Of a DNA stretch of 27,686 bases, positions 5,028-26,547 are shown piece by piece; positions within the stretch are counted from its first letter, which is position 1; every line of letters begins with the position of its first letter. This DNA is from a bacterium. Lineage in GTDB: Bacteria > UBP4 > UBA4092 > JAOAEQ01. The notes under the pieces were generated by a model. It did not search any database. It had not been told where the DNA came from and saw only the letters and a program-made list of their open reading frames with translations. Both the position numbers and the translations under genes were made by a program. Where the stretch lies: contig JAOAEQ010000001.1 in the NCBI GenBank assembly GCA_026416715.1, positions 243,043-270,728 on the forward strand, given 5' to 3'.

Positions 5028-6260
5028 ATGCAATCTCGAGATCGGATTCTATTCGCCTACCAACATAAAGAAGGAGACCGGGTTCCGTTATTTGAGCAAG
5101 CGGTAGCGGATAGTGTAGCGTCGGAGATTTTAGGGAGGAAAGCGTTTACTGGGAGTGCGAGTTTGCATCGGGAAGAAGCGGAAGCTTGGTTGCGTGGAGA
5201 GCAAGCGCATCAAGAATTTCTGGAAAAAACCCGGCAGGATATCGTTGCTTTAGCGAGAAAACTAGAATTCGATGCGATTCGAACCCCGTGGTTACTCGGA
5301 GAAAAACCGACAAAGAAGTTAGATGCGTATACTTACCTATATGGTGATTTAGCGAGTGATAGATGGACTATTCGGAAATATGATCCGGTTTCCCAAATGT
5401 TTGGGATCTATGACTCGAGCGACAATACTTTAGATATCGATGGATTAGAAAGAAGAATCGAAAAAATTGAACAAGAGTATAGAACAAAAACATTTTCGAA
5501 CGACGATTTTACCGAATTGATTGCTTACCGTACCTATTGCGGGGATGACTTAGAGGTGTTTGGTTATACGGCGATGTGTATACCCTATTATCCACCGATA
5601 TGGCTTGAAGCCATCGTTTTACGTCCAGATCTTATCGAGCGATGGTTAGATGCATTATTGGACTATGAGAAGAAATCCGTTGCGGTTCAGAAGACCTTGG
5701 GGATCCGAGTTGTGTTTGGGGGCGGGGATTTTGCGGATAAGAATGGTCCGTTCTATGGTCCGAAAGTTTTTCGCCGGATGGTAGTACCGCGATTACACCA
5801 CATGACGGAATATTGTCATTCATTAGGAATCTATTATTCCTTCAGTAGTGATGGCAATCTATGGTCGGTAGCAGATGAGTTATTTCTCGAGTCCGGCATC
5901 GATGGCTATGGTGAGATTGATATTGATTCGGGGATGGATTTAGCGGAAGTAAAAAGACGATACGGGCATAGGATTACCCTCTGGGGTGGGCTGAGTTGCG
6001 GGACAATCCTTCTCCAAGGGACTAAACAAGCGGTGATTGATGCTACCAAAAAAGCTATTGATGCTGCTGCTCCTGGTGGCGGATATATTTTTGGTTCGTC
6101 AAATATCATCATGAGTGGAACCCCGGTCGAGAATGTTTATGCCGCGTTCGAAACAGCGAAAGAGTATGGGAAATATAATAATAATTTTAGTAATACATTG
6201 AGCTCAAATCAATTTCATCATGAAAAGGTTACTGATATATCTAACCAAAGTTTTTCATGA
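5028..6260 (+). CDS. URO-D/MtaA-fold family protein, variant without the His-X-Cys zinc motif
   Basis: This 410-residue protein has the (beta/alpha)8 plan of uroporphyrinogen decarboxylase and corrinoid methyltransferases: N-terminal RDRILFAYQHKEGDRVPL, GGDFADKNGPF (231-241), LWGGLSCG (318-325) and PGGGYIFGSSN (349-359). Where the methyltransferase branch has a zinc-binding His-X-Cys-Gly, this one reads YYSFSSDGN (269-277), so it probably does not bind zinc in the usual way. It is not a heme-pathway HemE: no other heme gene is nearby and its neighbours are sugar genes. The last 25 or so residues are polar and low-complexity. The start lacks a Shine-Dalgarno. A decayed relative of its first 35 codons lies at 23242-23340. 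Family assignment is secure; substrate unknown. Methyl transfer or C-C chemistry on a sugar-derived compound is a guess. Confidence 0.85.
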   Translation: MQSRDRILFAYQHKEGDRVPLFEQAVADSVASEILGRKAFTGSASLHREEAEAWLRGEQAHQEFLEKTRQDIVALARKLEFDAIRTPWLLGEKPTKKLDAYTYLYGDLASDRWTIRKYDPVSQMFGIYDSSDNTLDIDGLERRIEKIEQEYRTKTFSNDDFTELIAYRTYCGDDLEVFGYTAMCIPYYPPIWLEAIVLRPDLIERWLDALLDYEKKSVAVQKTLGIRVVFGGGDFADKNGPFYGPKVFRRMVVPRLHHMTEYCHSLGIYYSFSSDGNLWSVADELFLESGIDGYGEIDIDSGMDLAEVKRRYGHRITLWGGLSCGTILLQGTKQAVIDATKKAIDAAAPGGGYIFGSSNIIMSGTPVENVYAAFETAKEYGKYNNNFSNTLSSNQFHHEKVTDISNQSFS

Positions 6261-6308
6261 GAAGTGTTCAGTGTAAATCCATTCAGGGTAAGTATTTTTT
6301 TCGGAGAC

Positions 6309-6321
6309 TGTAATAATTACA
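6309..6321. promoter_or_regulatory. Possible operator palindrome TGTAAT-A-ATTACA
   Basis: A perfect 6-bp inverted repeat around one central base lies 18 bases before the ATG at 6340 and just upstream of a TATAAG that could be a -10 element. It has the size of a dimeric regulator site. In A+T-rich DNA this may be chance, and no second copy was recognised. Confidence 0.2.
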
Positions 6322-6339
6322 TTATAAGAGATTAAAAAT

Positions 6340-7440
6340 ATGCCAAATAATTTATTAACTAAACCAGTTGAACCGGATTTTGAAGCATTGCGAAATAATA
6401 TTTTGCGTAAAGGAACACCAACCCGGGTCCATTATATGGAATTGTATCAAGATAATGAAATAAAAGATGCAGTAGTTGCCCGATATGATTTGGAGAATAA
6501 ATTAGATAAAAATGATAAGTATTATCGCTATCAACGTGAGGTATTAATCCAAAAATTTCTCGGTTATGATATTGTTTGTGGTGCACTTGAGCCGCCAGTG
6601 ATATATCCAAATTTTATCACCGCACCAAAATCGCAAGATACAACGGCAATTATAAACCAAAATCGAGGAGAACGAATCTGGGCAAATGAACATCAGGGTC
6701 CAATTCAAACCTGGGAAGATTTCGAAAAATATCAATGGCCAGATGTCAATAAACTTGATTTATCATCGTTAGATTGGGCAAATAAAAATCTTGAGCCAAA
6801 TATGAAAGTCTATCTACCGACACACTCAATTTATGAACTCGGGTCTGCATTATTTGGTTATGAGCAACTATGTTACAAAATGTATGATGAGCCTGAATTA
6901 GTCGATGCTGTTTTTGCAAAAGTCGGTGAGAATCGTTTGAAACTAGCAGAAGTATATTGCGATTACGATTGTGTTGGGATGTTGTTTGGTGGAGATGATA
7001 TGGGATTTAAGACTGGTTTATTAATGCCGAAACAATTTTTACTAGAGAAAGTTTTACCGTGGTATAAAAAAATGGCAGAGGTTGCGCATAATAAGAATAA
7101 ATTGATAATACTCCATTCATGTGGAAATATTGAACCATTAATGGACTCGTTGATTAATGAGGTAAAGCTTGATGGCCGCCATTCGTTTGAAGATGTTATA
7201 ACACCGGTAACAGAAGCAAAACGTTTGTATGGTAATCGGATCGCGATTATTGGGGGTATCGATATGAATTTTATTTGTACGGCAACCGAATCAGAGATTC
7301 GTAAGCGTGTGAGGCAAACGTTAGATATCTGTCAACCCGGTGGCGGATATTGTTTAGGCACCGGCAATACTGTAGCAAATTATATTCCGTTAGAAAACTA
7401 TTTAATTATGTTGGATGAAGGTAGGAAATATACCAGTTAA
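6340..7440 (+). CDS. URO-D/MtaA-fold protein with His-X-Cys zinc motif
   Basis: This 366-residue member of the uroporphyrinogen decarboxylase superfamily is of the type found near carbohydrate genes. Key segments are GGDDMG (217-222), HSCGN with H259 and C261, GGID (305-308), and PGGGYCLGTGN (333-343) followed by NYIPLENY. H259, C261 and a downstream Cys (C331 or C338) fit the three protein zinc ligands used by MtaA-type methyltransferases to activate a thiol or other methyl acceptor. Haem-pathway HemE enzymes need no metal, so the motif favours methyl transfer. It lies 79 bases after the first URO-D gene and 21 before the next, in one probable operon. The Shine-Dalgarno is weak (AAGAGA). The actual substrate cannot be read from sequence. 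Confidence 0.85.
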   Translation: MPNNLLTKPVEPDFEALRNNILRKGTPTRVHYMELYQDNEIKDAVVARYDLENKLDKNDKYYRYQREVLIQKFLGYDIVCGALEPPVIYPNFITAPKSQDTTAIINQNRGERIWANEHQGPIQTWEDFEKYQWPDVNKLDLSSLDWANKNLEPNMKVYLPTHSIYELGSALFGYEQLCYKMYDEPELVDAVFAKVGENRLKLAEVYCDYDCVGMLFGGDDMGFKTGLLMPKQFLLEKVLPWYKKMAEVAHNKNKLIILHSCGNIEPLMDSLINEVKLDGRHSFEDVITPVTEAKRLYGNRIAIIGGIDMNFICTATESEIRKRVRQTLDICQPGGGYCLGTGNTVANYIPLENYLIMLDEGRKYTS

Positions 7441-7461
7441 TAGCTTATATAGGTTTCGATA

Positions 7462-8613
7462 ATGCAAAAACAAGATTTTACTAAACATAATGAAGAAGTT
7501 AAACAGGTGTGGGATGCCTATCGAGCCGGAAAACCAATTCGGGTTCCGATGACATTAGGTATTGGTCCGCGGATTTGGATATTTGATCCTAAATTAAATC
7601 AAGAAGGTATCGAATGGGAGCAATTTAGCAATGACCCAGAATTAATGTTTCAAACTTTTTTAAAATATAAATATTATGTAGTACATAATTTACCTCACGA
7701 TATTGAAATGGGTATACCTTCATCTCATTGGGAAGTATGGACTGAATTTGTAAATGTAACGGAAGAGGCTTGGTTGGGAAACGAGCTATATTATCCACCT
7801 GGACAAGTTACCGCAACCCGTCCGAGATATACTGGCGACAAAAAAAATGAGATATTCGATCGCGGAATTCCGGACCCATTTAGTGGAATATTTGCTCGCG
7901 TAAAAGAATATCATGAATATTTTATAGAAAAGGCCAAATCATTTGAGTTTTATGGTAAACCTGTCAAAGTCCTCCCTCCTTGTCCGCTAGCAACTGATGG
8001 AATATTTACCGTAGCGTTTAATATCAGGGGAAGTGAATTATTGGAAGATATTATGCTTGATGCGGAATATTTCCATAAATTGCTAACTTTGGTGACCGAT
8101 GCAATTATTCTAAAAATTAAAGCTTGGAGAAAATATTTGAATGTTGAAATGAAGCCGAAATCAGGCGCGTTTGCAGACGATGCCATTCAATTTATTTCAA
8201 CGGAAATGTATCGAGAGCATGTGTTACCATATCATCGGCGGTTTTTAGCGGAGTTGGCTGGAGAAGGTCCACATGCTATTCATCTTTGTGGTGATGTGCA
8301 ACGACACTTACCAACATTGGTGAAAGAACTCAATATTAAGTCATTTGATCTCGGATATCCCATTGATTATACAAAAATACGCGATGAACTAGGCGACGAC
8401 GTTGAAATTTTCGGTGGTCCATTAATAACGGATTTACTTGCATTGAGTCCGGAAGAGATAAAAGAGAAATCACGACATATTTTATGTAGTAGTATTAAAC
8501 GGGGTGGAAAATTTATTTTTAAAGAAGCGAATAATTTACCTCCTTGTGTACCAATAGCCAATATTCAAGCGATGTATGATTCAGTTAAATTATGGGGAAA
8601 ATACGAACCTTAA
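7462..8613 (+). CDS. Third URO-D/MtaA-fold protein with His-X-Cys motif
   Basis: This 383-residue superfamily member is clearly divergent from its two neighbours, so not a recent tandem copy. It has AGKPIRVPMTLG near the N-terminus, an ADD (238-240) in the strand preceding the active-site face, HLCGDV (H274, C276) and a later Cys (C342) spaced to complete a zinc site, then GGKFIFKEANNLPP near the end. By family it could be the methyltransferase component that takes or delivers a methyl group. Its last 22 bases overlap the start of the following sugar-binding lipoprotein in another frame, implying translational coupling and shared regulation with sugar uptake. Family assignment is good; reaction unknown. 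Confidence 0.82.
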   Translation: MQKQDFTKHNEEVKQVWDAYRAGKPIRVPMTLGIGPRIWIFDPKLNQEGIEWEQFSNDPELMFQTFLKYKYYVVHNLPHDIEMGIPSSHWEVWTEFVNVTEEAWLGNELYYPPGQVTATRPRYTGDKKNEIFDRGIPDPFSGIFARVKEYHEYFIEKAKSFEFYGKPVKVLPPCPLATDGIFTVAFNIRGSELLEDIMLDAEYFHKLLTLVTDAIILKIKAWRKYLNVEMKPKSGAFADDAIQFISTEMYREHVLPYHRRFLAELAGEGPHAIHLCGDVQRHLPTLVKELNIKSFDLGYPIDYTKIRDELGDDVEIFGGPLITDLLALSPEEIKEKSRHILCSSIKRGGKFIFKEANNLPPCVPIANIQAMYDSVKLWGKYEP

Positions 8614-9899: not shown

Positions 9900-9913
9900 T
9901 CAGTGATAAAACT

Positions 9914-10810
9914 ATGAAATTAACTCAACATCAGACACTTTGGTTTTATCTCATGATTTTACCGAGCTTGGTTGGTTTTGGATTATTTACATTCGGGCCC
10001 ATGGTATATTCGTTTTATTTAAGTTTTACGAAATATAATGTAGTTACGCCACCGAAATTCATTGGGTTAAAAAATTATCTCTATCTCCTAACGATGGATC
10101 CGGGGTTCTGGCCTTCAGTGAAAGTGACATTCATTTATGCAATAGTGAGTGTTCCCTTGCATATTGTTATTTCCTTATCTATAGCGCTATTACTCAGTGC
10201 AAATATTCGATGCATTGGATTATTCCGAACCATCTATTTTCTTCCTTCGTTATTACCCGCGACAGCGTCTGGAATCCTCTGGATATGGATATTCAATCCG
10301 AATTACGGTTTATTAAATAAAATATTAGCCACGGTCGGTATTGAAGGTCCGGCATGGACATTATCGACCACTTGGGCATTACCGGCTTTGATTATAATGG
10401 GACTCTGGGGATTTGGTGGCGGAATGATAATTTTTCTCGCCGGATTACGTAACATTCCCAGAACTTTTTATGAAGCTGCTGAAATGGATGGTGCTAATCT
10501 ATTTCAGAAATTTATCAATATAACATTTCCAATGCTGTCGCCGGTCATCTTTTTTAATTTCGTTATGGGGTTAATAGGTGCTATGAAAGTATTTGACCAG
10601 GCTTATGTGTTTGGTGCAGCTGGTCCTGGACCAGGGGGACCCGCTAGAGCGACATTATTCTATGTACTTTATTTGTATCAAAAAGCATTCGGTCATTTTC
10701 ATATGGGGTTAGGTTGTGCTATGGCGTGGATGCTTTTTGTGGCCATCGTTATATTAACCTATTGCAATTTTAAATTATCGAAAAAATGGGTTTTTTATAG
10801 TGGTGAATAA
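9914..10810 (+). CDS. Sugar ABC transporter permease, MalF/UgpA type
   Basis: This 298-residue inner-membrane protein has about six helices. The first (about 9-30) follows a short cytoplasmic end, and the conserved loop that docks the ATPase reads YEAAEMDGANLFQKF followed by IxFPML. This is the EAA motif with the G of the EAA---G pattern intact. The N-terminal segment through KFIGLKNY is typical of the MalF/UgpA family, without the long extra periplasmic loop of E. coli MalF. It starts 14 bases after the binding-protein gene and should pair with the MalG-type protein that follows. No strong Shine-Dalgarno is seen. Confidence 0.94.
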   Translation: MKLTQHQTLWFYLMILPSLVGFGLFTFGPMVYSFYLSFTKYNVVTPPKFIGLKNYLYLLTMDPGFWPSVKVTFIYAIVSVPLHIVISLSIALLLSANIRCIGLFRTIYFLPSLLPATASGILWIWIFNPNYGLLNKILATVGIEGPAWTLSTTWALPALIIMGLWGFGGGMIIFLAGLRNIPRTFYEAAEMDGANLFQKFINITFPMLSPVIFFNFVMGLIGAMKVFDQAYVFGAAGPGPGGPARATLFYVLYLYQKAFGHFHMGLGCAMAWMLFVAIVILTYCNFKLSKKWVFYSGE

Positions 10811-10822
10811 CCTGATAGATTT

Positions 10823-11668
10823 ATGGTTCATAAGAAAAATATCGCAACGTTCAGTATTTATTTGGTTTTAGTTATCGGTTCGATAGTTATGATATTGCCG
10901 TTAACCTGGATGGTTTTAACGTCACTAAAATCATTTCAGGAAATATTGATATCACCAGAAAAATGGATTCCAGAACGATTGCAATGGCATAATTATGTAG
11001 AAGCACTCACTACATTTGATTTTTTACTTTATCTAAAAAATTCTTTGTTTGTAACCACGATGATTATTGCTGGCACATTAATATCAACCAGTTTATCTGC
11101 ATACGCTTTTGCATGTCTTTATGCGAGATGGGGAAATGTAATCTTTGGGATCCTATTAAGCACCATCATGTTACCAGGGCAAATAACGATAATTCCAGTG
11201 TTTCAACTTTTTGTGAAATTAGGATGGATTAATACGTATTACCCATTAATTGTCCCAGCATGGTTAGGAACTAATGCGTTTAGTATTTTCCTTCTCCGAC
11301 AATTTTTTAAAACTATTCCCAAAGATTATATTGACGCAGGTAGAATTGATGGCGCATCGGAGGTGCGAATTTTATGGGATGTATTTATTCCTTTATCCAA
11401 ACCAGCGTTGTTAACGATAACGGTATTTACTTTTATCGGTTCTTGGAACGATTTGTGGAGCCCATTAATCTTTATCCACAAAGAAAAATTATATACATTA
11501 CCAATTGCGTTAATTAATTTTATAGGCATTACTGGACATGTACAAGGAACTCCTTGGCATTTGATTATGGCGGTTTCAACCGTAATGATGATTCCGATTA
11601 TTGTACTTTTTTTCATAGCACAAAGGAAGTTTATTGAAGGCATTAGTATGACAGGATTGAAAGCATGA
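10823..11668 (+). CDS. Sugar ABC transporter permease, MalG/UgpE type
   Basis: A 281-residue membrane protein of the MalG branch: N-terminal helix, LTSLKSFQEI, NSLFVTT, then the EAA-type ATPase-docking loop YIDAGRIDGASEVRILWDVFIPLSKPAL, here split as YIDAGRIDGAS and IPLSKPAL, and GSWNDLWSPLIF. The ending FIEGISMTGLKA is characteristic of the family. It begins 12 bases after its partner. Its TGA stop overlaps the ATG of the decayed URO-D gene (ATGA), so the operon once continued into that gene. No ATPase gene is present anywhere in the window; a shared MsmX/MalK-type ATPase encoded elsewhere is presumably used. Confidence 0.94.
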   Translation: MVHKKNIATFSIYLVLVIGSIVMILPLTWMVLTSLKSFQEILISPEKWIPERLQWHNYVEALTTFDFLLYLKNSLFVTTMIIAGTLISTSLSAYAFACLYARWGNVIFGILLSTIMLPGQITIIPVFQLFVKLGWINTYYPLIVPAWLGTNAFSIFLLRQFFKTIPKDYIDAGRIDGASEVRILWDVFIPLSKPALLTITVFTFIGSWNDLWSPLIFIHKEKLYTLPIALINFIGITGHVQGTPWHLIMAVSTVMMIPIIVLFFIAQRKFIEGISMTGLKA

Positions 11669-12578
11669 GTAAAGTGTACCGAGACCATTACCATTTGACT
11701 TCACGAGAGCGGGTCACAATCGCAATTCGTAATCAAAAACTAGACCGATTGCCGGTGAAACCGGATATTTCTTGAATAGTTTCTTCCTGGCTAATAAAAA
11801 GATTAAAAAAATTCAAAAGGATTAGTCACGGTTTTAATATCTTTTAGGTGAGATTGAATATAAAGACATTGGTTGAAATCCAAGGGTAAGAACTTGGGCA
11901 ACGTAAGAGGCGAGAATTAGCATTGCTGCTATTGGATTTCATGTATGAACCTCCTATTTTGACAACGGAATCGAAATGTAAATTATATCCTTGTTGATAC
12001 CCTGGCGATATTTGATGAACTTATCGTATCATGCAACATTTAACTAATATTGTAAAAGAAGAAACCTTAATTTTATTCTTATAGGAGATTCAGGATTACT
12101 TGCCTTGTCGTCATCGTAGTTAGTATAGTTGCATATTCGTTTGCGAAACTTAACAGCAAAGTGAATATTATTCTCAGCATGGTATATTGATAATCGATAC
12201 ATTCATATGGGCAAGGAAAGTTCGCGGACGAGATTCGTTTCCGTGAAACAGTATTAATAAACTGTATGGATCCGCTAGAAGTTCCTCCATGGTGATTGTA
12301 TTCTAACGGTAGTAAACAAATTGTTAAGGATATCAAGCCTGCTTTAATGGCGAATTTACATCCTCTTGAGATTAGCTATTGGGAATAGTCGACCAGGTGA
12401 AAAATGCAGTGAAAAAAGCGATTGATGATGCTGATCGAAATGGTGGGTTTATTTTAGCTATATTAGAGAATAATGTAACCACGATGCACCTAATGAAAAT
12501 ATTTTAGCATTAGTTGAAACTAAGGAACATATACGTAAAGGAACCATTATTCATTTGGCAAACACCATTGAGAAATAA
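11665..12578 (+). pseudogene. Decayed URO-D/MtaA-fold gene
   Basis: The start overlaps the permease stop and opens well (MSKVYRDHYHLTSRERVTIAI, then LDRLPVKPDIS), but a TGA halts it at codon 37. Homology resumes in fragments: LGEIEYKDIG-stop-NPRVRTWAT, MDPLEVPPW near 12265, VDQVKNAVKKAIDDADRNGG with FILA near 12390-12455, then a frameshift to APNENILALVET and a final TAA at 12576-12578. The order and spacing match a full-length gene of about 300 codons with several stops and at least one frameshift. Two of the stops fall where Trp codons are expected (TGG to TGA). This was the fourth URO-D paralogue of the operon, placed directly 3 bases before the GH130 start. No functional protein is expected. 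Confidence 0.82.
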
Positions 12579-12581
12579 TTT

Positions 12582-13649
12582 ATGTTAGGAAAACGACATC
12601 ATTTTAATCCGCTGATTACTCCGCAAGATATTAAGCCATCCTGTAATGATTTTGAAGTGATCGGAGTATTTAATGCTGGTGCAACTATTTATCAAAATGA
12701 AGTTATCCTATTGTTACGAGTTGCGGAACGACCGAAACCAGAAAAGGGTTGGATACATATTCCCATTTTAGACCTCGCTGCTATATCTAAATCTAATAAA
12801 TACCCCATTAAGATAATATCGTTTCATAAAGATAAGTCTGGTTTAGAGACTTCTGACCCTCGAGCTATCTATGATGAATGGAAATTATATCTGACGAGTA
12901 TATCGCATTTTCGTCTCGCAAGAAGTAAGGATGGAATGCATTTCCAGATTGCTGCCGAACCGACTATTTATCCACAAAATGCATATGAAACATACGGTAT
13001 TGAAGATCCGCGTATAACTAAAATTGATAATATATATTATATAACCTATGTAGCGGTTTCAGAAGCTGGTATTTGTACTGCATTGCTTTCAACGAAAAAT
13101 TGGCAAAAATATTATCGGCATGGAATTATTTTCCATCCGATGAATAAAGATGTAGTTATTTTCCCTAAGAAAATTAATGATGTGTATGTAGCACTTCATC
13201 GTCCCGATGCCGCGCCCTGTACGAAACCATCAATTTGGCTTGCTTTTTCACCGGATTTAATCCATTGGGGAAAACATCAATTATTACTACAACCTCGAGA
13301 AACTAAATGGGATGCGGAACGAATCGGAGCGGGTGCACCACCAATATTAACCAAACATGGTTGGCTTGAAATCTATCATGGCGTATCGAAAAAATATGGA
13401 TACTCACTGGGTGCATTACTTTTAGATAAAAATCACCCGGGAAAAATTATTGCTCGATCACCAAAACCGATTTTATTTCCACAAGAAGATTATGAAAAAA
13501 ATGGATTTTTCGCTAATACGGTATTTACCAATGGGATTGTCCAATGGCCTGATGAGCCGGATGTAATTCATATATATTATGGAGCCGGGGATACCTATAT
13601 TTGTCATGTCGCCGTATCTTTGCAGGAAATTTTCCGTAGTCTAAGATAA
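12582..13649 (+). CDS. GH130-family glycoside phosphorylase or hydrolase
   Basis: A 355-residue cytoplasmic five-bladed beta-propeller enzyme without signal peptide. GH130 hallmarks in order are FNPLITP (8-14), FNAGATI (30-36), LLRVAERP (44-51), GIEDPRIT (139-146) with the catalytic-type D142, LHRPDAAP, GAGAPPI and the C-terminal YYGAGDTYICHVA. GH130 members use phosphate to cleave beta-1,4- or beta-1,2-mannosides and related Man-GlcNAc links, or hydrolyse beta-1,2-mannosides. Which one applies cannot be told by eye. It would act on the oligosaccharide imported by the transporter upstream. It follows the decayed URO-D gene with only 3 bases between, so its translation may have depended on that gene; its own ribosome site is weak. 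Confidence 0.92.
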   Translation: MLGKRHHFNPLITPQDIKPSCNDFEVIGVFNAGATIYQNEVILLLRVAERPKPEKGWIHIPILDLAAISKSNKYPIKIISFHKDKSGLETSDPRAIYDEWKLYLTSISHFRLARSKDGMHFQIAAEPTIYPQNAYETYGIEDPRITKIDNIYYITYVAVSEAGICTALLSTKNWQKYYRHGIIFHPMNKDVVIFPKKINDVYVALHRPDAAPCTKPSIWLAFSPDLIHWGKHQLLLQPRETKWDAERIGAGAPPILTKHGWLEIYHGVSKKYGYSLGALLLDKNHPGKIIARSPKPILFPQEDYEKNGFFANTVFTNGIVQWPDEPDVIHIYYGAGDTYICHVAVSLQEIFRSLR

Positions 13650-14338
13650 TTGATACTGAAAAGTCAACTATTAGAAATCTTAAAATCTAAACGAAAAGGA
13701 TTCATAAGTTTCCAAAATCGAACTACAACAAGAAGCAATAATCTGATTTCGGGTAGCGCTAAAAACTAACATGATGTTCATTAGAAAAGAGAAACCGTTA
13801 TCCCAAGAATATAAAAGCGGTTAAAATCACACTATATCTTATTTAACCGATTTAAAATGGACCAAATGAATTCTGGGAAAGGCATCGTACTGCGAACCCA
13901 TGTGTAATTCGGTTTAAAAAGAGCTAAGAGTTTTTAGGATATCGTGCTGGGAGTTAGATGGAGCAGTTCAATGAAATTGGATATGGGATAATAGTAAGTA
14001 TTAGATTATAAAAATCCCGAGAAGGTTTATATCGTTCGACGAAATTAATCACTCCATTACAGTTAGAATTCGGATGGATCATAAGTGAATCGTGCAATCT
14101 CTGTTCCGAAATAATTGGAGTAGCAGAAAAGTTCATGCCAGAAAAGGTATGAAAAAAATATTGAGCTTGAGCGTTCTTGAAGATAAAGGGATAACATTTA
14201 GTTCCCCAATGTTTAAATGGCAACAGCAGAAAAGTGGATTATTGCCATTATATAAGGAAAAATATATTTTGTTAGATTGCATCAAACGATATACACCTTT
14301 GTTTACCATAGGATTTTTTCCGTGATGGAGGATATAAC
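13650..14338 (+). other. Degenerate stretch, probable remains of an unidentified gene
   Basis: This 689-base gap holds no intact gene. From about 13869 one plus-strand frame reads protein-like text interrupted by three stops (FWERHRTANPCVIRFKKS, EFLGYRAGS, MEQFNEIGYGIIVS, LITPLQLEFGWIISESC), and a second frame continues from 14150 (MKKILSLSVLEDKGITFSS). The pattern looks like a decayed gene. I do not recognise the family. The last 20 bases before 14339 contain a weak GGAGG-like site (gatggaggat) serving the sulfatase. Confidence 0.4.
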
Positions 14339-15898
14339 ATGGAGTCCAATTTAATCTCTCGAAGAGATTTTATACGGAAAGTTGCATTAGGGGGCGTTGC
14401 AATGAGTTTATCCTATAAAATGCCAGCAAAAATAATCTCACCAGCAAGCATTTTCACGAAAACAACAAAAATGCCTAATATTATGCTAATTTTAACTGAT
14501 GATTTAGGTTGGGGTGATTTGAGTTGTTATCCGCAATCACTGCAAGAACCGGATGCCTGGATTTAGACTCCCAATATAGATAGACTAGCAGCAGAAGGTA
14601 TTAAGTGTATGTAAGCGTATGCAACGTGCGCGGTATGTACACCTTCCCGGGCAGGATTGCTTACCGGCAGATATCAACAGTATTTCGGTTGGTATGATTT
14701 TAAAGAAGCTTTGGTTGGTATTCCCAAAAATGAAATGATGATACAAGAATATTTAAAGTCGCTAGGATATGCTACCGCTCTTATAGGAAAATGGCATCTC
14801 GGATATCACCATGAAATCGGACCACTCCATCGAGGATTTGACCGGTTTTATGGTTTTCTCGGTGGTCAACATGATTATTTTGATCCCCGTTTAGGTGATC
14901 CAACCGTTGGATTTCCGCTAGATTATGATGCCTATGTTTTCGATCAGAAAGAACCGGTCCAAAAGATGGATTATTTAACTGATGAACTAACCCAACGAAG
15001 TATTCAGTTTATTGAAGAACAAACAAAATCGAAAAAACCATTTTTCTTATATTTAGCATATAATACACCGCATCCACCGATGCAAGCAAAATGGGAAAAA
15101 CTTGAAAAATACGCATTAAAACGGAGCGGTAAATTTAATCATCGCGATATTACTCGAGCGATGATAGATTCGTTAGATGATGGAATCGGCCGAATTATGA
15201 CGAAACTTAAAGAACTGGAAATTGAGCGAGATACGCTAATAATTTTTACGAGTGATAATGGAGGCGCAGATGATCGCGGAGAAGGTCAGCCAGTAGTACA
15301 ACATAATGGTGGGCTTCGTCCACGAAAAGGATTTTTGTGGGAAGGAGGGATTCGAGTCCCTTTTATTTTGCATTGGCCTAAAAAACTACCAACAGGAATC
15401 ACCTACATTCATCCAGTGAGTCATCTTGATATTTTTGCGACTATAGTTGGAATAACCAAACCTTCGCAATTACCAAAACCACTTGATGGGATTAATCTTC
15501 TTCCTTACCTCCAAGGCAAAATAAAAAATATGCCACATCAAACACTTTTTTGGGGATTTGAATCGGAAGTAGATCGCTGGGCAATTCGGAAAGGAAAATG
15601 GAAATTAACCAGAGATGTTGTAAGTCCAAAATCACAATATGACGGAACTAATGTCTTGGTGGCGGAACTCCATGATTTGGAAAACGACCCGGAAGAACGA
15701 ATCAATTTATCAGCGAAGTATCCTGAAAAAGTGAAAGAATTAACCGAATTGAAAGAAAAATTTTATACTAAGTGTATGCCAACTATAGCCACTCAAAGTG
15801 TTATTAGTGCATGGCAAAAGGATTTACAGAATCGTCGCGAGAAGCTGCCGCATTCAGAACAGCTGCGTCGGGATGGCGCACCTGGGCACTGGTTATAA
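14339..15898 (+). pseudogene. Tat-exported S1 sulfatase interrupted by two in-frame stops
   Basis: Read through, this is a 519-residue formylglycine sulfatase. A twin-arginine signal (SRRDFIRKVALGG) precedes MLILTDDLGWGD, the metal-binding Asp pair. The activation motif CTPSR has Cys100 (14636-14638) as the residue oxidised to formylglycine. IGKWHLG, FTSDNGG and WEGGIRVPF follow, all in one frame. Two stops interrupt the start: TAG at 14564-14566 and TAA at 14612-14614. In sulfatases both sites commonly hold Gln or Lys/Thr (WI-x-TPNIDRLAAEG, KCM-x-AYAT), so each is explained by one C-to-T change from CAG and CAA. The remaining 428 codons are undamaged. A good GGAGGAT site precedes the ATG. 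Likely a recent pseudogene; read-through or sequence error are alternatives. No sulfatase-maturing enzyme is in the window. Confidence 0.9.
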
Positions 15899-15950
15899 CT
15901 ATTCCTATGTATACCGTCATTTAATAAACTCAAAGGAAAAAGAGAATAAT

Positions 15951-17111
15951 ATGAAGGTGGTGCCGATGACTTTAGAACAATCTAAAAACTTTTTTAAAAA
16001 TGGAGTTTTCGATTGGCAGTTCGCTGAACAAGACCGTAAAAAAACATGGCTGGAACGTTGTTATTCAAAAGAACGGTGGTGGGGCGATTTTCCAAAAGAT
16101 TTAAAAGTACCCCAAAACTTATTTCATGAATATCCATGGGCTATAGGGCCTTTTGAGAAGTATACCGGTAACCCTATCCTTGCGCCGACTCCTGGTTCAT
16201 GGGACCAAGGTCATTTTAGTGGTGGTGTCCATAATGGTTCGATTTTGATTCGAGATGGGAAATTCTATTATATTTATCGAGGTGAGCGTCCAATAGATAT
16301 TCGCACGTCGAGTCCTATTGATTATATTTGTGATATTGGTCTTGCCGTGAGTAATGATGGAATTCATTTTATTAAAGATGATATCCATAGTCCATTTTTT
16401 CGAAAAGGCGAAGACCAACGCTTTAGTTATGAAGACGTATGTTGTGTAAAATATAAAGATGTGTATTATTTATTTTGTAATCAATGGTTGTGGGAAGAGA
16501 TGCATAATCCACGGATGAGCGGGGTATTTTTAGCTATTTCTCATGATTTGTTTCATTGGGAAAAAGTAGGGATTGTATTTCCTAAAGCGAACCGCATTCA
16601 TCGGAATCCAGTTGTACTTCAAAGTCCCATCAATGAAGCAGTTCGGGTGAATGGTAGTTTTGTTATGTATATTAATGATGGATTGATGGCATATTCAGAC
16701 GATTTAATTCATTGGGAATCAAAAGAAATCGAATATCGCTGGCCTGGTGGAGAAGGATGTTTTGCTCTGACAAATCATAGTCCAGAAAGATCCGAGGATA
16801 TCATTCTTTTTACCGGCGGACACCATACTGGTCATTTTTATGCCATAGGTGAAGTTTTATTTTCACAATCTAATCCCGAAAAACCATTAGCCTATCTTCC
16901 AAGACCGGTGCTCTATGCAGAACCGAAATATCCTTACGAAAACGGGTTTACAGCTGAAGAACCACATCGGTTTATTTCGAGTTTTGCAGATACGGTATTT
17001 TTTACTGGGCTTACGCGTTATGCTGGTCGATGGTGGTTGTATTACGGTGGGAGTGAATATTATACTTGTTTAGCAAACGCCGATGCTGGACAATCTAAAA
17101 ACAGCGAGTAA
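15951..17111 (+). CDS. GH130-like five-bladed propeller glycosidase
   Basis: A 386-residue protein with the repeated beta-propeller blades of GH130/GH43-like enzymes: YTGNPILAPTPGSW (71-84), GGVHNGSILIRDGKFYYIYRGER, LAVSNDGIHF, SYEDVCC (159-165) with E161-D162 where GH130 has EDPR, ISHDLFHWEKVG, YSDDLIHWE and the terminal RWWLYYGGSEYYTCLA. The DPR part of the catalytic motif is altered, so subfamily and activity are uncertain; a hydrolase-type GH130 or an inactive binder is possible. There is no signal peptide. The ATG at 15951 is preferred over longer in-frame starts because AAAGGAAAAAGAG precedes it and the upstream extension overlaps the sulfatase. It lies 52 bases after the sulfatase. Confidence 0.8.
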   Translation: MKVVPMTLEQSKNFFKNGVFDWQFAEQDRKKTWLERCYSKERWWGDFPKDLKVPQNLFHEYPWAIGPFEKYTGNPILAPTPGSWDQGHFSGGVHNGSILIRDGKFYYIYRGERPIDIRTSSPIDYICDIGLAVSNDGIHFIKDDIHSPFFRKGEDQRFSYEDVCCVKYKDVYYLFCNQWLWEEMHNPRMSGVFLAISHDLFHWEKVGIVFPKANRIHRNPVVLQSPINEAVRVNGSFVMYINDGLMAYSDDLIHWESKEIEYRWPGGEGCFALTNHSPERSEDIILFTGGHHTGHFYAIGEVLFSQSNPEKPLAYLPRPVLYAEPKYPYENGFTAEEPHRFISSFADTVFFTGLTRYAGRWWLYYGGSEYYTCLANADAGQSKNSE

Positions 17112-17179
17112 GTATGTTATATATCTCTGTATTTTTATAAAAAATTTAATTTTTACAATTTTATAAGAAGGTAATATAT

Positions 17180-19474
17180 ATGAAATTAACCAACAATGAT
17201 AACAGTTTTATAGTTCTGGCAAAAAATTATTTATTTTGGAAACCACCCTTGATACGAAATTATATTCCACTATCCATCATCGTAGTATTGTGCTTAATAT
17301 TTCCCATTCATCTTTTCGCTAAAGAATATAGCAATGTTAACATCATTTATGTAGATACGACATCATTTAAATTACAAACTGGCAACTATTTACTGGAATA
17401 TTCAGTCAAAACCACGGAAAATATCCAGGGATGGATTATCATCCGGCGAACTGGAGTCAATAATTTTGGGATCGCTACAAAGTTAGCAAATGGACAGGGA
17501 TTGGATGTAACTGATGCTTGCGGTTCCCGTGAGGCCTCTCTCTATGGATGGAAAGATTTGCGTAAAGATTCAAATATGTTCCGTTTCCTGACCGTTGAAG
17601 ATACAACGGATATGATACAAATTCGTATTCAAACAGAAAGACAATGGGCAAAATTCGATGCTTACCTGTATGTTTATAAAAAATATCCTGGCTTGATACG
17701 TTGGACTGTAACCGCATATGCTAAAGAAGATAAAGCATTTTCGGGTAAAGCAACACCCGATTGTTTTTTCTATGTCAACGGAATGATAACTCAATGGGGT
17801 GAACAACCACAAGAAGTTGTTCGATATAGTGTGCAGCGAGGTCCAGCTTCAGGGATTTTATATTTTCGGAGCATTCCGATGAATAGCTACGTTTTTTATT
17901 TTGAGGATTTTTCGTCTTTAAACGATATTTACCGCCTTACGCAATGTGATAATCCTTATGATTATCCCGCTTTGGGAAACCCTGGTGCTGTTCGGATGGG
18001 CCACCCGGAAAGTTGGTTCCAGATGTCCAGTCCCGATGGGAATAATGTCCAGCCGCTCAAACCATATCAAGAGAAAATTGAAAAGTTTTCTGAATTCGGA
18101 TATGAACGACCGCAGAGTTATCGTATCCCCAAAGGAAAAACAGTTACCTTAGCAGATACATATCTTTATCTTCGGCCAGTGACTAACCATGATAATATTA
18201 CCATCTGTAAAAATTTTGTTGAAATGCTAGCTGATATCTATCAATACATCTATAAACCGCCAATGATAAAAACTGATTGGGCTAACGATATTGTACCCCA
18301 AATGGTTAATGATATTATGCGGATTGAAAACACATCGATTGTGTTGGGAAAATATAAAATACCACGCGCTTATGTACATTATGAACATGAAGATAGCCAA
18401 CTCTGGACGATAGTTCAGCTTCTTCACCCGTTAGAATTATATATAAAAAAATATCCGGGTAAGAAAAATGCAGTTGAGTTACGAAACCGTTTAAATGAAT
18501 CACTTCCATTATTTTTCGATAAGGAATGGAAGGGATTCCATAATAATCTAGCGCCAATTAATCAGGATGTATTTTTTACCGTTGTTTATATTTTTACTCC
18601 TGCGGTAATTATTGCAGACTTAGCACGATTAGGAAATCAAAATGCTACAACGATGCTGATGGGATTTCGTGATCGTTTATTAATTATGGGGAAAGCGTAT
18701 AATTATGAAATGGCAGATATCTGGTTACGTGATTTCAGTAAACAAAAAGGATATTATCAGACGGACGCGCTTTGTTGTTATATGTATGTAATGATGGCGT
18801 TATATGAGCTCAGTGGCGGGAAAGATAAGGAATGTTTATCCGCAGCAATAGCTGCCGCTAAACGGCTAGAACTTAGATGTATGGACTTAATGTGGGAAGC
18901 GAATATGACCGCTGCGGGGGTTGTAGCTTGCGAACAATTATACAAAGCTACAGGCGACGAGAAATACCGAGCATTAGCATATATTCCACTAGCGAATGTT
19001 TTACGCGAATGTTGGTTATGGGAATCAGATTATGGTGCAGGTGAAAAGACGGTAACATTTTGGTCGGTTTGTCCTTGTCCTGGCGCACCTACGACAGCAG
19101 AATTTGAAGCCCATCGAATGCGATACCATTTTAAAGAGTATCAAAAAATGGCATCTGATTTTTTGTCATCTAATGTAAACGCGTTATTAATTGATAGTTG
19201 GAAGCGAGGCCCTACACAAAGTAGATTTGCACTTCCTCCGATTCTTGCAAAAGAAGGATTGATTCAATATATGGCCAAAGAAGGGAAAACTCAGACTAAC
19301 TGCGGAGAAATTAGGTATACCCAGATGATTCCTTTCGAAGATGTGCGAGCAACTTGGGGTACGGATTTAGAATGGTGGCAGAATAATACTAAATTAGGCG
19401 CAGTTGGACAGGAAATATACGGTGCTGGTGGACCGATTTGGTATGCGATATGGCAAGATGAGTTAAATGAATAG
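17180..19474 (+). CDS. Secreted protein of unknown family, helical toroid-like C-terminal half
   Basis: A 764-residue protein beginning with a long basic leader and a hydrophobic helix (about 29-47, LSIIVVLCLIFPIHLFA), either a signal peptide cut after A47 or an anchor. The first half (about 50-350) is rich in beta-type segments, with NVNIIYVDTTSFKLQ and a cluster of aromatic residues. The second half is helical with repeated helix pairs (YYQTDALCCYMYVMMALYE, LYKATGDEKYRALAYIPLANV), as in (alpha/alpha)6 glycosidases and lyases. WSVCPCPGAPTTAEFEAHRM is the most distinctive segment. I do not recognise the family; it is not a standard SusD, GH127 or heparinase by eye. A good Shine-Dalgarno, AGAAGGT, precedes the start. 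Context suggests an extracytoplasmic polysaccharide-degrading enzyme feeding the transporters. Confidence 0.75.
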   Translation: MKLTNNDNSFIVLAKNYLFWKPPLIRNYIPLSIIVVLCLIFPIHLFAKEYSNVNIIYVDTTSFKLQTGNYLLEYSVKTTENIQGWIIIRRTGVNNFGIATKLANGQGLDVTDACGSREASLYGWKDLRKDSNMFRFLTVEDTTDMIQIRIQTERQWAKFDAYLYVYKKYPGLIRWTVTAYAKEDKAFSGKATPDCFFYVNGMITQWGEQPQEVVRYSVQRGPASGILYFRSIPMNSYVFYFEDFSSLNDIYRLTQCDNPYDYPALGNPGAVRMGHPESWFQMSSPDGNNVQPLKPYQEKIEKFSEFGYERPQSYRIPKGKTVTLADTYLYLRPVTNHDNITICKNFVEMLADIYQYIYKPPMIKTDWANDIVPQMVNDIMRIENTSIVLGKYKIPRAYVHYEHEDSQLWTIVQLLHPLELYIKKYPGKKNAVELRNRLNESLPLFFDKEWKGFHNNLAPINQDVFFTVVYIFTPAVIIADLARLGNQNATTMLMGFRDRLLIMGKAYNYEMADIWLRDFSKQKGYYQTDALCCYMYVMMALYELSGGKDKECLSAAIAAAKRLELRCMDLMWEANMTAAGVVACEQLYKATGDEKYRALAYIPLANVLRECWLWESDYGAGEKTVTFWSVCPCPGAPTTAEFEAHRMRYHFKEYQKMASDFLSSNVNALLIDSWKRGPTQSRFALPPILAKEGLIQYMAKEGKTQTNCGEIRYTQMIPFEDVRATWGTDLEWWQNNTKLGAVGQEIYGAGGPIWYAIWQDELNE

Positions 19475-19510
19475 AACAGCAATGTCATAATATTTCCAAC
19501 CGAATTAAGT

Positions 19511-20803
19511 ATGAACGTACAAAATGATATTGTTATCTACATGTGTGGTATCGGACTCATATTCGGATTATTGGCTTGTTCGCACAAAACAACAAATAAC
19601 CAAACGAAAAAGCAAATAATTATTGTTAATATGACTCGGGATATGGTTGAGATTCATCAGGAAAATTTAAAAATCGAGCAAGAATTTATGCGATTAAATC
19701 CGAATATTAAAGTTATAAATATCAATGTACCGAATCGAAGTTATTGGACAAAATTATTAACGATGATTGCTGCCGGTAATCCGCCAGATATGATTTTATT
19801 AGATACAGAACAATTCCCAAAATTTGTTAAACGAGGTTATCTGCTTGATTTAACGCCATATCTTGAGAAAGATAGGGAAATTGAAATAGATGATTATTTT
19901 CCGGAAGCGGTTCGGCGAAGTTCATATCAAAAGAAAATCTTCGGTATTCCAACAGATACTGCAATAGCCCTTCCTTTTTACAATTGTGATATATTTGACC
20001 AAGTAGGAATACCATATCCATCTGAACATTGGAGTTGGGATGATTATCTTAGGATCGCGAAAAAGTTGACCCGAGATATTGATGATGATGGGAAAATTGA
20101 TATTTATGGTAGTGGCGGTGTTCCTTGGATTCAATATACATTTTCGCAAGGAGGACATTTTGTTGATAATCCCATAAATCCTACTAAATGTACCATTGAT
20201 GACCAAATTGTAATGAATGCAATCCAGTGGGTAGCTGATTTACGATTAGTCCATAAGGTTTCACCGGATCCAGCGCAACTCGCTTATGAAACTGTCGATG
20301 ATATGTTTGTGGCTGGGAAAATCGCGATGAATATCAATGGCCATTGGCTAGTACCTAAATATAGAGCAATTAAGAAATTTCGCTGGAATGTTGCATCAAT
20401 GCCAACCGGAAAAGTCGGGAAAGCGGCGATTAATTTTGGTTCCTGTTATGCAATTCCAGCTGGAACTAAACATCCAGATGCTGCTTGGAAACTCTTAAAA
20501 TTTTATGCAAGTATACCTATTGCAAAGCGATTTGTTTCGTTTGGATATTTTACTCCGGCCAATAAGTTGATTGCATACTCTCCAGAATTTTTAAACAGCG
20601 GTTTACCTCCGGCTAATGAAAAAGCTTTCCTTGAAGCAATGCATTATACTGTTTCGTATCCGTTTTTCGAGAAGAATTCGGAAATGATTGATATGTTCAA
20701 TTCGGAATTACAATCGATTTTTATTGGGACTAAAAAAGCTAAAGATGTTTGTCCGCAACTTGCAAAACAAATAAATCAACGTATTTTTAATCGAGGTGAG
20801 TGA
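19511..20803 (+). CDS. Second family-1 sugar-binding lipoprotein, without its own permeases
   Basis: A 430-residue extracytoplasmic solute-binding protein. The N-terminal hydrophobic stretch ends at lipobox LLAC (Cys23). Family features are VNMTRDMVEIHQ, FMRLNPNIKVI, AAGNPPDMILLDTEQFP, WSWDDYLRIAKKLTRD, INFGSCYAIPAGTKHPDAAWKLLKFY. It shares the layout of the binding protein at 8592 but is clearly diverged, so it probably binds a different sugar. No permease follows; it may share the permeases at 9914-11668 or have lost its own in the degenerate DNA nearby. Its stop overlaps the coding start region of the next GH130 gene, coupling the two. Confidence 0.92.
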   Translation: MNVQNDIVIYMCGIGLIFGLLACSHKTTNNQTKKQIIIVNMTRDMVEIHQENLKIEQEFMRLNPNIKVININVPNRSYWTKLLTMIAAGNPPDMILLDTEQFPKFVKRGYLLDLTPYLEKDREIEIDDYFPEAVRRSSYQKKIFGIPTDTAIALPFYNCDIFDQVGIPYPSEHWSWDDYLRIAKKLTRDIDDDGKIDIYGSGGVPWIQYTFSQGGHFVDNPINPTKCTIDDQIVMNAIQWVADLRLVHKVSPDPAQLAYETVDDMFVAGKIAMNINGHWLVPKYRAIKKFRWNVASMPTGKVGKAAINFGSCYAIPAGTKHPDAAWKLLKFYASIPIAKRFVSFGYFTPANKLIAYSPEFLNSGLPPANEKAFLEAMHYTVSYPFFEKNSEMIDMFNSELQSIFIGTKKAKDVCPQLAKQINQRIFNRGE

Positions 20804-20808
20804 CCTTT

Positions 20809-21954
20809 ATGAAACCATATAGATTACCGGTTCAACGTATCAATGATGGTAAACCTATTATTACACCTCAAGGTTCTGCGTGGGAATCTGGGGTAACCTT
20901 CAATGCAACCGCGATTTATTTACCTAGGTCGGAAAAGAACGACGCAATAATTTTGAAATTGCTGGGACTAAAAGAAATATCCGATAAAAAGTTAGATGAT
21001 GGAGTTGTAGCAATATTTTACCGTGCTCGACCCAAACAGGATCCGGGATATCGATGGTCACGTTCCTACATCGGACTAGCAATATTTACTCCTATGTTTG
21101 AATTGCTAAAACGGTTCCCTGAGCCAATCTTATCTCCCGCGAACAAGGTAACAGCGTATGATGGATTAGGCGTTGAAGACCCTAGAATTACTAGGATAGA
21201 CGATACATTCTACTGTGTTTATTGTGGTGTTGCTGATAAATTGAATGGAGATTATCAGGCATCAATATGTTTGGCACGTTCAACTGATTTATTCACATGG
21301 GAAAAACTTGGTCCAGTTCAAGGTGAAGTTAATTTCCCACATATAAAAAATAAAGATGGCGTTTTATTTCCTGAGAAAATTGAGGGAAAATATTTTCTGC
21401 TCCATCGACCGTATCATAATGAGTTACCATTATCTGATTTTAGTATACATCTCGCAATGGCGGATTCGTTACCTGGAGTTTGGAAAAATTGTGGGGAAAT
21501 ACTTCACTCTTTTATAAATCCAGAATGTTGTGATTCTTGGGTTGGTGCCGGCTCGGTTCCGATTCCGATAGGAGATAAAAAATATCTGGTTATATACCAT
21601 ATTGGTAATTTTTTGAAAAAGGATAAGAATTTACGAGAATATGATTTAGGGGCAGCGATTTTTGATTTTAATAACTTTTCAGAAAAGCAGCCAGCGGTAA
21701 TTGTTGATAAGAGATTAGAACCGTTGATGGTTCCGGAGACTAAATGGGAAATAGAAGCCCCGTATTCGGATAGTGTAGCGAATGTTGTTTTTATTTGCGG
21801 GTCGTATGAATACAAAGGAGATATTTACCTCATTTATGGTGGTGGAGATACTTATACTCTTGCTGCGAAGGTGAACAAACAAGTATTGTTAGAAGAACTA
21901 CAAAAAAGCGATTCTACTAACCCATATATCAAAAATAAAACAAATTTTTTATAA
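20809..21954 (+). CDS. GH130-family glycoside phosphorylase or hydrolase (third propeller gene)
   Basis: A 381-residue cytoplasmic GH130-fold enzyme: GKPIITPQGSAWES, FNATAI (31-36), FYRARPKQDPG (70-80), GVEDPRIT (121-128) with the catalytic-type D124, LHRPYHNELP, GAGSVPI, and C-terminal IYGGGDTYTLAAKV. It is diverged from the two other propeller genes, so a distinct linkage preference is likely. The ATG at 20809 is preferred over the GTG at 20800 because GAGGTGA (20793-20799) sits 9 bases before it, inside the end of the binding-protein gene. It is the last intact gene of the island; no terminator hairpin was seen after it. Confidence 0.92.
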   Translation: MKPYRLPVQRINDGKPIITPQGSAWESGVTFNATAIYLPRSEKNDAIILKLLGLKEISDKKLDDGVVAIFYRARPKQDPGYRWSRSYIGLAIFTPMFELLKRFPEPILSPANKVTAYDGLGVEDPRITRIDDTFYCVYCGVADKLNGDYQASICLARSTDLFTWEKLGPVQGEVNFPHIKNKDGVLFPEKIEGKYFLLHRPYHNELPLSDFSIHLAMADSLPGVWKNCGEILHSFINPECCDSWVGAGSVPIPIGDKKYLVIYHIGNFLKKDKNLREYDLGAAIFDFNNFSEKQPAVIVDKRLEPLMVPETKWEIEAPYSDSVANVVFICGSYEYKGDIYLIYGGGDTYTLAAKVNKQVLLEELQKSDSTNPYIKNKTNFL

Positions 21955-22661: not shown

Positions 22662-22772
22662 GGTTATTGTCGTTTTTTTAATCAGGGATTGTTTTTATAT
22701 AAAAATCAATGGTGGTTATATTATGGTGCAGCGGATCATGTCTGTTGTGTAGCGACCGCACATCTGAAGTAA
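22662..22772 (+). pseudogene. C-terminal fragment of a GH130-type gene
   Basis: A 36-codon open stretch ending in a natural TAA reads NQGLFLYKNQWWLYYGAADH then VCCVATAHLK, the terminal blade of GH130 enzymes (compare YYGAGDTYICHVA at the end of the gene at 12582 and RWWLYYGGSEYYTCLA in the gene at 15951). Nothing recognisable of the N-terminal blades lies directly upstream. This is a remnant of a fourth propeller gene, not a functional protein. Confidence 0.75.
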
Positions 22773-26531: not shown

Positions 26532-26547
26532 AATATAAACCTCCTAG
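26532..26547 (-). promoter_or_regulatory. Strong ribosome-binding site of the DUF499 gene overlapping the methylase stop
   Basis: On the minus strand TAGGAGGTTTATATT runs from the methylase TAG stop into the ATG at 26531. GGAGG begins with the last base of the stop codon and lies 8 bases before the start, so translation of the two proteins is coupled. It is among the best Shine-Dalgarno matches in the window. Confidence 0.75.

What the first reader, a model, noticed from the sequence alone, without database searches (positions are those of the whole stretch)
5028..21954. Candidate system: URO-D/MtaA-like proteins built into a GH130-sulfatase-ABC glycan locus
Seen: three dissimilar URO-D-fold genes run directly into a sugar-binding protein (22-base overlap) and two permeases, a fourth URO-D gene overlaps the permease stop, and GH130 and sulfatase genes follow. 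Known: the non-HemE branch of this fold (MtaA, MtbA, CmuA-type) moves methyl groups through a zinc site. Inference: the locus may take up a decorated, possibly O-methylated, glycan and strip methyl groups before or after GH130 cleavage. Against it: no corrinoid protein, no reductive activator and no obvious methyl acceptor in the window.
Basis: partly seen in the sequence, partly recalled or inferred. Interest (0 to 1): 0.75.

Follow-up and report, generated by a model that had tools for sequence, protein, structure and literature searches.

The report
Methyl-transfer enzymes in a mannoside locus
Three enzymes distantly related to a heme-synthesis enzyme sit beside sugar-uptake and mannoside-cleaving genes in a bacterium from a poorly sampled phylum; comparative evidence suggests they belong to vitamin-B12-dependent methyl-transfer systems, and so may strip methyl groups from imported sugars, though the substrate is unproven and part of the locus is decaying.

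Summary
The core observation holds: three intact, dissimilar URO-D genes (5028-8613) run into an ABC sugar-binding protein (22-base overlap) and two permeases, and GH130 genes follow. The "fourth URO-D gene" is a pseudogene, the sulfatase has two in-frame stops, and a GH130 fragment lies downstream, so the island is partly decayed.

None of the three is HemE, and none falls in the MtaA/SCMT branch. UROD3 orthologs sit beside corrinoid protein and/or RACo activator genes in 7 of 42 loci elsewhere. Armatimonadota genomes with UROD1, 2 or 3 almost always encode RACo (55/55, 106/107, 87/88; about half of all genomes do). Outside the window, the genome has one MtaC-type corrinoid protein, one RACo, one methyl-H4folate:corrinoid methyltransferase and an Fhs-MetF-MtaA-like run beside a GH38 mannosidase. 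The finding's main counter-argument therefore falls.

UROD3 keeps two of MtaA's three zinc ligands; the third is an invariant Asn. UROD1 lacks all three. The "MtaA-like zinc site" is not met.

Best reading: substrate-specific MTI enzymes sharing one corrinoid hub, demethylating imported sugars. The methyl-sugar substrate is inferred, and transporter linkage is rare in relatives. New variant of a known kind.

The parts
5028..6260 (+). UROD1, URO-D-fold protein (410 aa), lacks MtaA HxC and third Cys; invariant D234, D275, E296, D298, N359 in its family
   Evidence: Pfam URO-D 9.9e-15; family alignment A4 of 17; AF2 model pLDDT 90.5, Z 28-29 to HemE and MtaA structures
6340..7440 (+). UROD2, URO-D-fold protein (366 aa), HSCG ... 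Asn
   Evidence: Pfam URO-D 1.3e-17; MtaA best solved relative E 1.3e-4; two own-genome paralogs in the same clade
7462..8613 (+). UROD3, URO-D-fold protein (383 aa), HLCG ... invariant Asn357; orthologs sit in corrinoid methyltransferase cassettes
   Evidence: Pfam 7.4e-20; 39-member family with invariant D239 D240 H274 C276 N357; AF2 pLDDT 96; clusters with CP/RACo in L035, L127, L129, L130, L132, L133, L138
8592..9899 (+). ABC sugar solute-binding protein (SBP_bac_1)
   Evidence: Pfam 6e-35
9914..10810 (+). ABC permease (MalF type)
   Evidence: Pfam BPD_transp_1 1.9e-10; 42% identical to the permease next to the Anaerolinea UROD3 (L031/L135)
10823..11668 (+). ABC permease (MalG type)
   Evidence: Pfam 7.3e-16; 48% identical to the permease next to the Anaerolinea UROD3
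11665..12578 (+). URO-D pseudogene (UROD4): start overlaps permease stop, then stops and scrambled frames
12582..13649 (+). GH130 mannoside phosphorylase (intact)
   Evidence: Pfam GH130 1.8e-56; nearest NCBIfam model NF050092 mannobiose phosphorylase, 433 bits, below its 550 cut-off
14339..15898 (+). Sulfatase gene broken by two in-frame stops (TAG 14564, TAA 14612) ahead of the CTPSR active-site motif
   Evidence: Pfam Sulfatase 1.8e-42 for the part from 14657
15951..17111 (+). GH130/GH43-like five-bladed propeller protein, divergent
   Evidence: sub-threshold GH130/GH43; beta-1,2-mannobiose phosphorylase model 1.5e-20
17180..19474 (+). 764-aa protein of unknown family with hydrophobic N-terminus
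   Evidence: no Pfam or NCBIfam hit
19511..20803 (+). second ABC sugar solute-binding protein
   Evidence: Pfam SBP_bac_1 3.1e-36
20800..21954 (+). GH130 (nearest beta-1,2-mannobiose phosphorylase model)
   Evidence: Pfam 9.1e-33; NF052550 2.1e-43
22611..22760 (+). GH130 C-terminal fragment (ghost)
   Evidence: 36% over 50 aa, E 1.9e-5

Best explanation
The three URO-D proteins are substrate-specific methyltransferases (MTI) that work with one corrinoid protein encoded elsewhere in the genome. An ABC importer brings in a decorated mannoside. GH130 enzymes open it by phosphorolysis. Each URO-D protein takes a methyl group from a particular methylated sugar and passes it to cob(I)alamin on the shared MtaC-type corrinoid protein. 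RACo reactivates oxidised cobalt. The methyl-H4folate:corrinoid methyltransferase (MTII) moves the methyl to H4folate, and MetF with Fhs oxidise it towards formate. Shown here: the anatomy, the presence of every named partner gene in the genome, and the association of these families with corrinoid systems elsewhere. Inferred: the methyl-transfer reaction itself, that the methyl donor is an O-methyl sugar, the direction of flux, and that the single corrinoid protein serves these URO-Ds.
For: 1) UROD3 orthologs are next to corrinoid protein and/or RACo in 7 of 42 loci in Clostridia, Armatimonadota and Anaerolineae. In the 1.5-Mb Clostridia genome G006 the only two URO-Ds are an UROD3 ortholog and an MtaA-like protein, in one cassette with corrinoid protein and RACo. 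2) Across 291 Armatimonadota genomes UROD3 occurs with RACo in 87/88 (66/203 without UROD3), UROD2 106/107, UROD1 55/55. In the RACo-poor half: 31/31, 20/20, 6/6. 3) The own genome has one B12-binding_2 corrinoid protein (best NCBIfam hit MtgC), one AcsV/RamA-like RACo and one MTII (NF005719, 345 bits vs cut-off 259). It has no acetyl-CoA synthase match, so this set is not explained by a Wood-Ljungdahl pathway. 4) Fhs, MetF and an HxC..C MtaA-like URO-D form a same-strand run next to a GH38 alpha-mannosidase (L016), and the corrinoid gene lies 3 kb from a GH130 gene (L026). 5) The nearest UROD3 relative (54%, Anaerolinea) sits in SBP-permease-permease-GH4-UROD3-MttB, with permeases 42-48% identical to the window's. 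6) Loss of Cys zinc ligands is what is reported for O- rather than S-methyltransferases of this superfamily (PMC10418091), and a zinc-free URO-D-fold MTI is solved (CdmB, PMC13222342).
Against: No corrinoid gene is within the window or near any of the 18 UROD1 or 20 UROD2 loci examined. Transporter linkage is rare in relatives. UROD2 orthologs sit among housekeeping genes. UROD1 lacks all three MtaA zinc ligands. The sulfatase and fourth URO-D are dead, so the locus may be losing its function. Genomes in the survey are not phylogenetically independent. No gene specific for methylated sugars was recognised in the window.
Confidence: 0.5

Rival explanations
1. The URO-D proteins are corrinoid-dependent MTIs, but the methyl donor is not a sugar O-methyl group: it is an S-, N- or aryl-O-methyl compound, and the glycan setting is incidental.
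For: Known substrates of URO-D-superfamily corrinoid methyltransferases are methoxyaromatics, chloromethane, methyl thiols and selenides (methoxyaromatic systems). UROD3 sits next to an MttB-like (trimethylamine methyltransferase family) gene in Anaerolinea. UROD2 orthologs lie among housekeeping genes.
Against: The window transporters are family-1 SBPs with MalF/MalG-type permeases and the neighbours are GH130s. Other own-genome URO-Ds sit with GH42/GH20, GH172/CE2 and NamZ. Loss of Cys ligands argues against S/Se donors (PMC10418091).
Confidence: 0.22
2. The proteins are sugar-acting lyases, isomerases or decarboxylases that reuse the URO-D TIM barrel, with no methyl chemistry.
For: UROD1 has invariant carboxylates and Asn but no MtaA zinc ligands. 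Its orthologs lie beside AP_endonuc_2 sugar-isomerase-like, GH2 and DUF5107 genes. The model also scores Z 14 to a 3-keto-glucopyranoside lyase, as TIM barrels can.
Against: The near-absolute co-occurrence of all three families with RACo and the CP/RACo clusters of UROD3 have no ready explanation under this reading. UROD3 keeps the His and Cys of MtaA in 39/39 members.
Confidence: 0.17
3. The island is a decaying remnant, no longer functional as a unit; the intact URO-Ds are survivors without a current glycan role.
For: UROD4 pseudogene, two nonsense codons in the sulfatase, an unreadable 13650-14338 stretch and a GH130 fragment.
Against: UROD1-3, both SBPs, both permeases, the GH130s and the 764-aa gene are all open, and UROD1 and UROD3 keep their family-invariant residues.
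Confidence: 0.11

Closest known systems
MtaA/MtbA soluble CoM methyltransferases (SCMTs) and Mlp proteins of type 1 MGCs
   Same: URO-D fold; best sequence relatives in PDB for UROD2 alone and for the UROD1 and UROD3 families (4AY7); UROD2 and UROD3 keep the HxC motif; partners CP and RACo exist in the genome
   Different: third zinc Cys is Asn; 39-49 bits against the MtaA/CmuA subfamily models, whose cut-offs are 235-244; outside the HemE/MtaA clade; in a glycan locus rather than in an MGC
O-demethylase / CdmB-type MTI of corrinoid ether-cleaving and dehalogenating systems (OdmB, VdmB, MtvB, MtoB, CdmB)
   Same: URO-D-fold MTI (CdmB) plus one corrinoid protein, an MTII and a RACo; zinc ligands not conserved as in SCMTs; CdmB matches the UROD3 profile (E 2.8e-7)
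   Different: known donors are methoxyaromatics or chloromethane; genes are clustered, whereas here the CP, MTII and RACo lie on other contigs and the URO-Ds sit with sugar uptake and GH130
HemE, uroporphyrinogen decarboxylase
   Same: fold (Z about 22-29)
   Different: N-terminal RQAGR motif absent; HemE His at the third position is Asn; separate clade
GH130 mannoside phosphorylase loci with ABC importers
   Same: SBP, two permeases and several GH130s
   Different: URO-D genes built in; sulfatase broken

Membership tests
HemE | N-terminal RQAG substrate motif | tested here: not met
   absent from all 14 own-genome URO-Ds, present in the HemE control L040
HemE | placement in the HemE clade / TIGR01464 cut-off | tested here: not met
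   17.1 bits for UROD3, no hit for UROD1/2, cut-off 303; tree
MtaA/CmuA (SCMT) family | score above TIGR01463 / NF004889 cut-offs | tested here: not met
   34-49 bits vs 235-244
MtaA/CmuA (SCMT) family | His-Cys-Cys zinc ligands | tested here: not met
   UROD3: H, C, N in 39/39; UROD2: H, C, N; UROD1: no His or Cys, N
MtaA/CmuA (SCMT) family | clade with MtaA | tested here: not met
   HemE + MtaA + own L016 group 96/94, window proteins outside
Corrinoid methyltransferase MTI (functional class) | URO-D (or equivalent) TIM barrel | tested here: met
Corrinoid methyltransferase MTI (functional class) | genomic association with CP and RACo | tested here: met
   UROD3: 7/42 loci physically linked; all three families co-occur with RACo at genome level. 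UROD1 and UROD2 mainly by co-occurrence
Corrinoid methyltransferase MTI (functional class) | CP, RACo and MTII encoded in the same genome | tested here: met
Corrinoid methyltransferase MTI (functional class) | methyl transfer from donor to Co(I) | not testable with these tools
   needs enzymology
O-demethylase/CdmB-type MTI | clade with OdmB/VdmB/CdmB | tested here: inconclusive
Type 1 MGC | Mlp2 and Mlp3 in one gene cluster with CP and RACo | tested here: inconclusive
   no CP or RACo in the window; Mlp reference sequences not available; the Clostridia cassette L035 has one SCMT-like and one UROD3-type protein

The most novel reading that the evidence does not exclude
Glycan-degrading bacteria of several phyla run a hub-and-spoke methylotrophy: a dozen or more divergent URO-D methyltransferases, each placed with the uptake and hydrolysis genes for one methylated glycan, deliver sugar methyl groups to a single shared corrinoid protein and on to folate for oxidation. 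This would be a B12-dependent anaerobic route for demethylating methylated sugars.
Probability: 0.35. Interest if true: 0.85.

Novelty: new variant of a known kind. Interest (0 to 1): 0.6.

Why it matters
O-methyl sugars can block glycosidases, and the known bacterial demethylation route for them that I can name from memory is oxygen-dependent (P450, marine Bacteroidetes; not checked here). An anaerobic corrinoid route would link polysaccharide breakdown to C1 metabolism. It would also give a function to part of the large unassigned portion of the URO-D superfamily, which reaches 12-32 copies in five of the six relatives' genomes examined and is easily mis-annotated as heme biosynthesis.

Tried and rejected
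HemE reading rejected. 'Four URO-D genes' rejected: the fourth is a pseudogene. The idea that UROD2 orthologs sit next to a ~710-aa alpha-glucuronidase (GH67-like) was tested and failed: the neighbours are RecQ, PriA and a protein with no Pfam hit. Fold comparison does not separate HemE from MtaA: best Z differs by under 2 for UROD3 and by about 1 for UROD1; CdmB was not among the listed chains. Wood-Ljungdahl explanation for RACo and MTII not supported: no CdhC/AcsB match in the own genome. In-phylum comparison gave nothing: one other genome, without UROD1. Literature searches found no description of URO-D genes in glycan loci; this is limited to the open-licence library.
Full report
WHAT IS THERE. 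The window lies in a 2.96-Mb genome (100% complete by the tool's estimate) of a phylum with only two held genomes. Downstream of an M17 aminopeptidase gene, three URO-D ORFs (5028-6260, 6340-7440, 7462-8613) lead into an SBP_bac_1 gene (overlap 8592-8613) and two BPD_transp_1 permeases. A GH130 gene (12582-13649), a divergent GH130/GH43-like gene (about 15951-17111), a 764-aa protein with no Pfam hit, a second SBP and another GH130 (20800-21954) follow. The alleged fourth URO-D at 11665 reads 36 codons and then breaks up. A 26-residue stretch near its start matches a URO-D at 61.5%. The sulfatase frame 14339-15898 holds TAG at 14564 and TAA at 14612, both before CTPSR. A GH130 fragment lies at 22611-22760. 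The island is therefore a mixture of intact and decaying genes.

NOT HemE, NOT SCMT. The genome has at least 14 URO-Ds: 13 plus UROD2. None carries the HemE RQAGR motif. Against NCBIfam the window proteins score at best 39-49 bits with the MtaA/CmuA subfamily models, well below cut-offs of 235-244, and 17 bits or nothing with HemE. In a maximum-likelihood tree HemE, MtaA and the own-genome protein L016_9398 fall in one group (96/94), while UROD1, UROD2 and UROD3 fall in three other clades, each supported at 100/98 or better. Long branches make deep relations unsure. At the third zinc-ligand position HemE has His, MtaA has Cys and all three window proteins have Asn, invariant in 39 UROD3 and 17 UROD1 family members. 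UROD3 keeps MtaA's His and Cys in 39 of 39; UROD1 keeps neither but has invariant D234, D275, E296 and D298. Predicted structures (pLDDT 96 and 90) are URO-D folds and match HemE and MtaA about equally.

LINK TO CORRINOID SYSTEMS. A genome-contig scan found UROD3 relatives in Anaerolinea, Armatimonadota and Clostridia. In Clostridia L035 the order is UROD3, corrinoid protein, MtaA-like URO-D, a 183-aa protein, RACo, and that genome has only these two URO-Ds. Counting all fetched UROD3 loci (42 after removing duplicates), a corrinoid protein lies within about 8 kb in L035, L127, L129, L130, L132 and L133, and RACo in L035, L129, L130, L133 and L138. A rough expectation for RACo by chance is 0.2 loci, against 5 seen (Poisson p about 3e-6; it assumes 1.6 RACo copies per 4.3-Mb genome and 14-kb stretches). 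Several clusters hold multiple URO-D genes. At genome level, RACo is found in 153 of 291 Armatimonadota. It accompanies UROD3 in 87/88 (66/203 without UROD3), UROD2 in 106/107 and UROD1 in 55/55. The single exception, G529, is the same for UROD2 and UROD3. In the RACo-poor half of the list the figures are 31/31, 20/20 and 6/6. Fisher p values are tiny but ignore shared ancestry; RACo-positive runs of genomes in that half held UROD3 in 13 of 17 cases, assuming list order follows relatedness. For UROD1 and UROD2 the support is co-occurrence only.

PARTNERS IN THE OWN GENOME. One B12-binding_2 protein exists, closest to glycine-betaine MtgC models, beside a PocR/AraC regulator and 3 kb from a GH130 gene and then a GH116 gene. 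One RACo is AcsV/RamA-like. One MTII passes the NF005719 cut-off. Fhs, MetF, the MtaA-like URO-D, a radical-SAM/SPASM protein and a GH38 alpha-mannosidase lie on one strand in L016. No CdhC-type acetyl-CoA synthase was found. The main parts needed to take methyl groups to folate, and MetF and Fhs for onward oxidation, are thus present, on separate contigs; the folate enzymes between MetF and Fhs were not searched for. That they work together is inference.

LINK TO GLYCANS. Other own-genome URO-Ds sit with GH42/GH20/GHL10 (L024), GH172 (DUF2961)/CE2 (L018) and NamZ (L021). The nearest UROD3 relative lies in an Anaerolinea run of SBP, two permeases (42 and 48% identical to the window's), GH4, UROD3, MttB-like and a SIS-type gene (SIS and FGGY names are my reading of the sequence). 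In G565 an UROD1 relative lies within 8 kb of two permease-like genes and a sulfatase (L185), and in G067 UROD3, another URO-D and UROD1 sit together next to an SBP_bac_5 gene. These are the only transporter linkages recognised among some 80 loci, with searches that would miss divergent transporters, and UROD2 orthologs sit beside PriA and RecQ. Glycan linkage is thus real but patchy.

JUDGEMENT. The finding survives with corrections. What is well supported is that the three families, UROD3 most strongly, belong to corrinoid methyltransferase systems. What is plausible but unproven is that the donor is an O-methyl sugar of a mannoside. Published work says Cys-to-other changes at the zinc site mark O-methyltransferases (PMC10418091) and that zinc-free URO-D-fold MTIs exist (PMC13222342), which fits. 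No paper describing glycan-locus URO-Ds was found in the open library searched.

Noticed in passing
L016 (G000:C25), 4707-13107, minus strand: Fhs, MetF, MtaA-like URO-D (HxC..C kept), radical-SAM/SPASM and GH38 alpha-mannosidase in a row: a C1-folate run beside a mannosidase.
   Followed up: partly
L026 (G000:C11), 3362-10622: The genome's only MtaC-type corrinoid protein lies next to a PocR-AraC regulator and about 3 kb from a GH130 gene, with a GH116 gene beyond.
   Followed up: partly
L129 (G459), L133 (G442), L138 (G291): Clusters of several divergent URO-D genes with RACo, and with a corrinoid protein in L129 and L133, in Armatimonadota and Anaerolineae; each URO-D may have its own substrate.
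   Followed up: partly
L021 (G000:C29), 7925-10340: A URO-D gene overlaps the end of a NamZ exo-beta-N-acetylmuramidase gene. MurNAc carries a lactyl ether, so an ether-cleaving role could be tested.
   Followed up: no
window 17180-19474: 764-aa protein with no Pfam or NCBIfam hit and no homolog in the fetched loci; possible new glycan-active family.
   Followed up: no
window 23871-27686, minus strand: DUF499 gene next to a protein whose start reads like part of a DNA methyltransferase (339 aa, no Pfam hit); perhaps a defence or mobile element pair.
   Followed up: no
L036, L038 (Clostridia), 5661-8000 region: Tandem UROD3-type genes between a glyoxalase-like gene and a ~750-aa gene on the other strand, a recurring arrangement without corrinoid genes nearby.
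   Followed up: no
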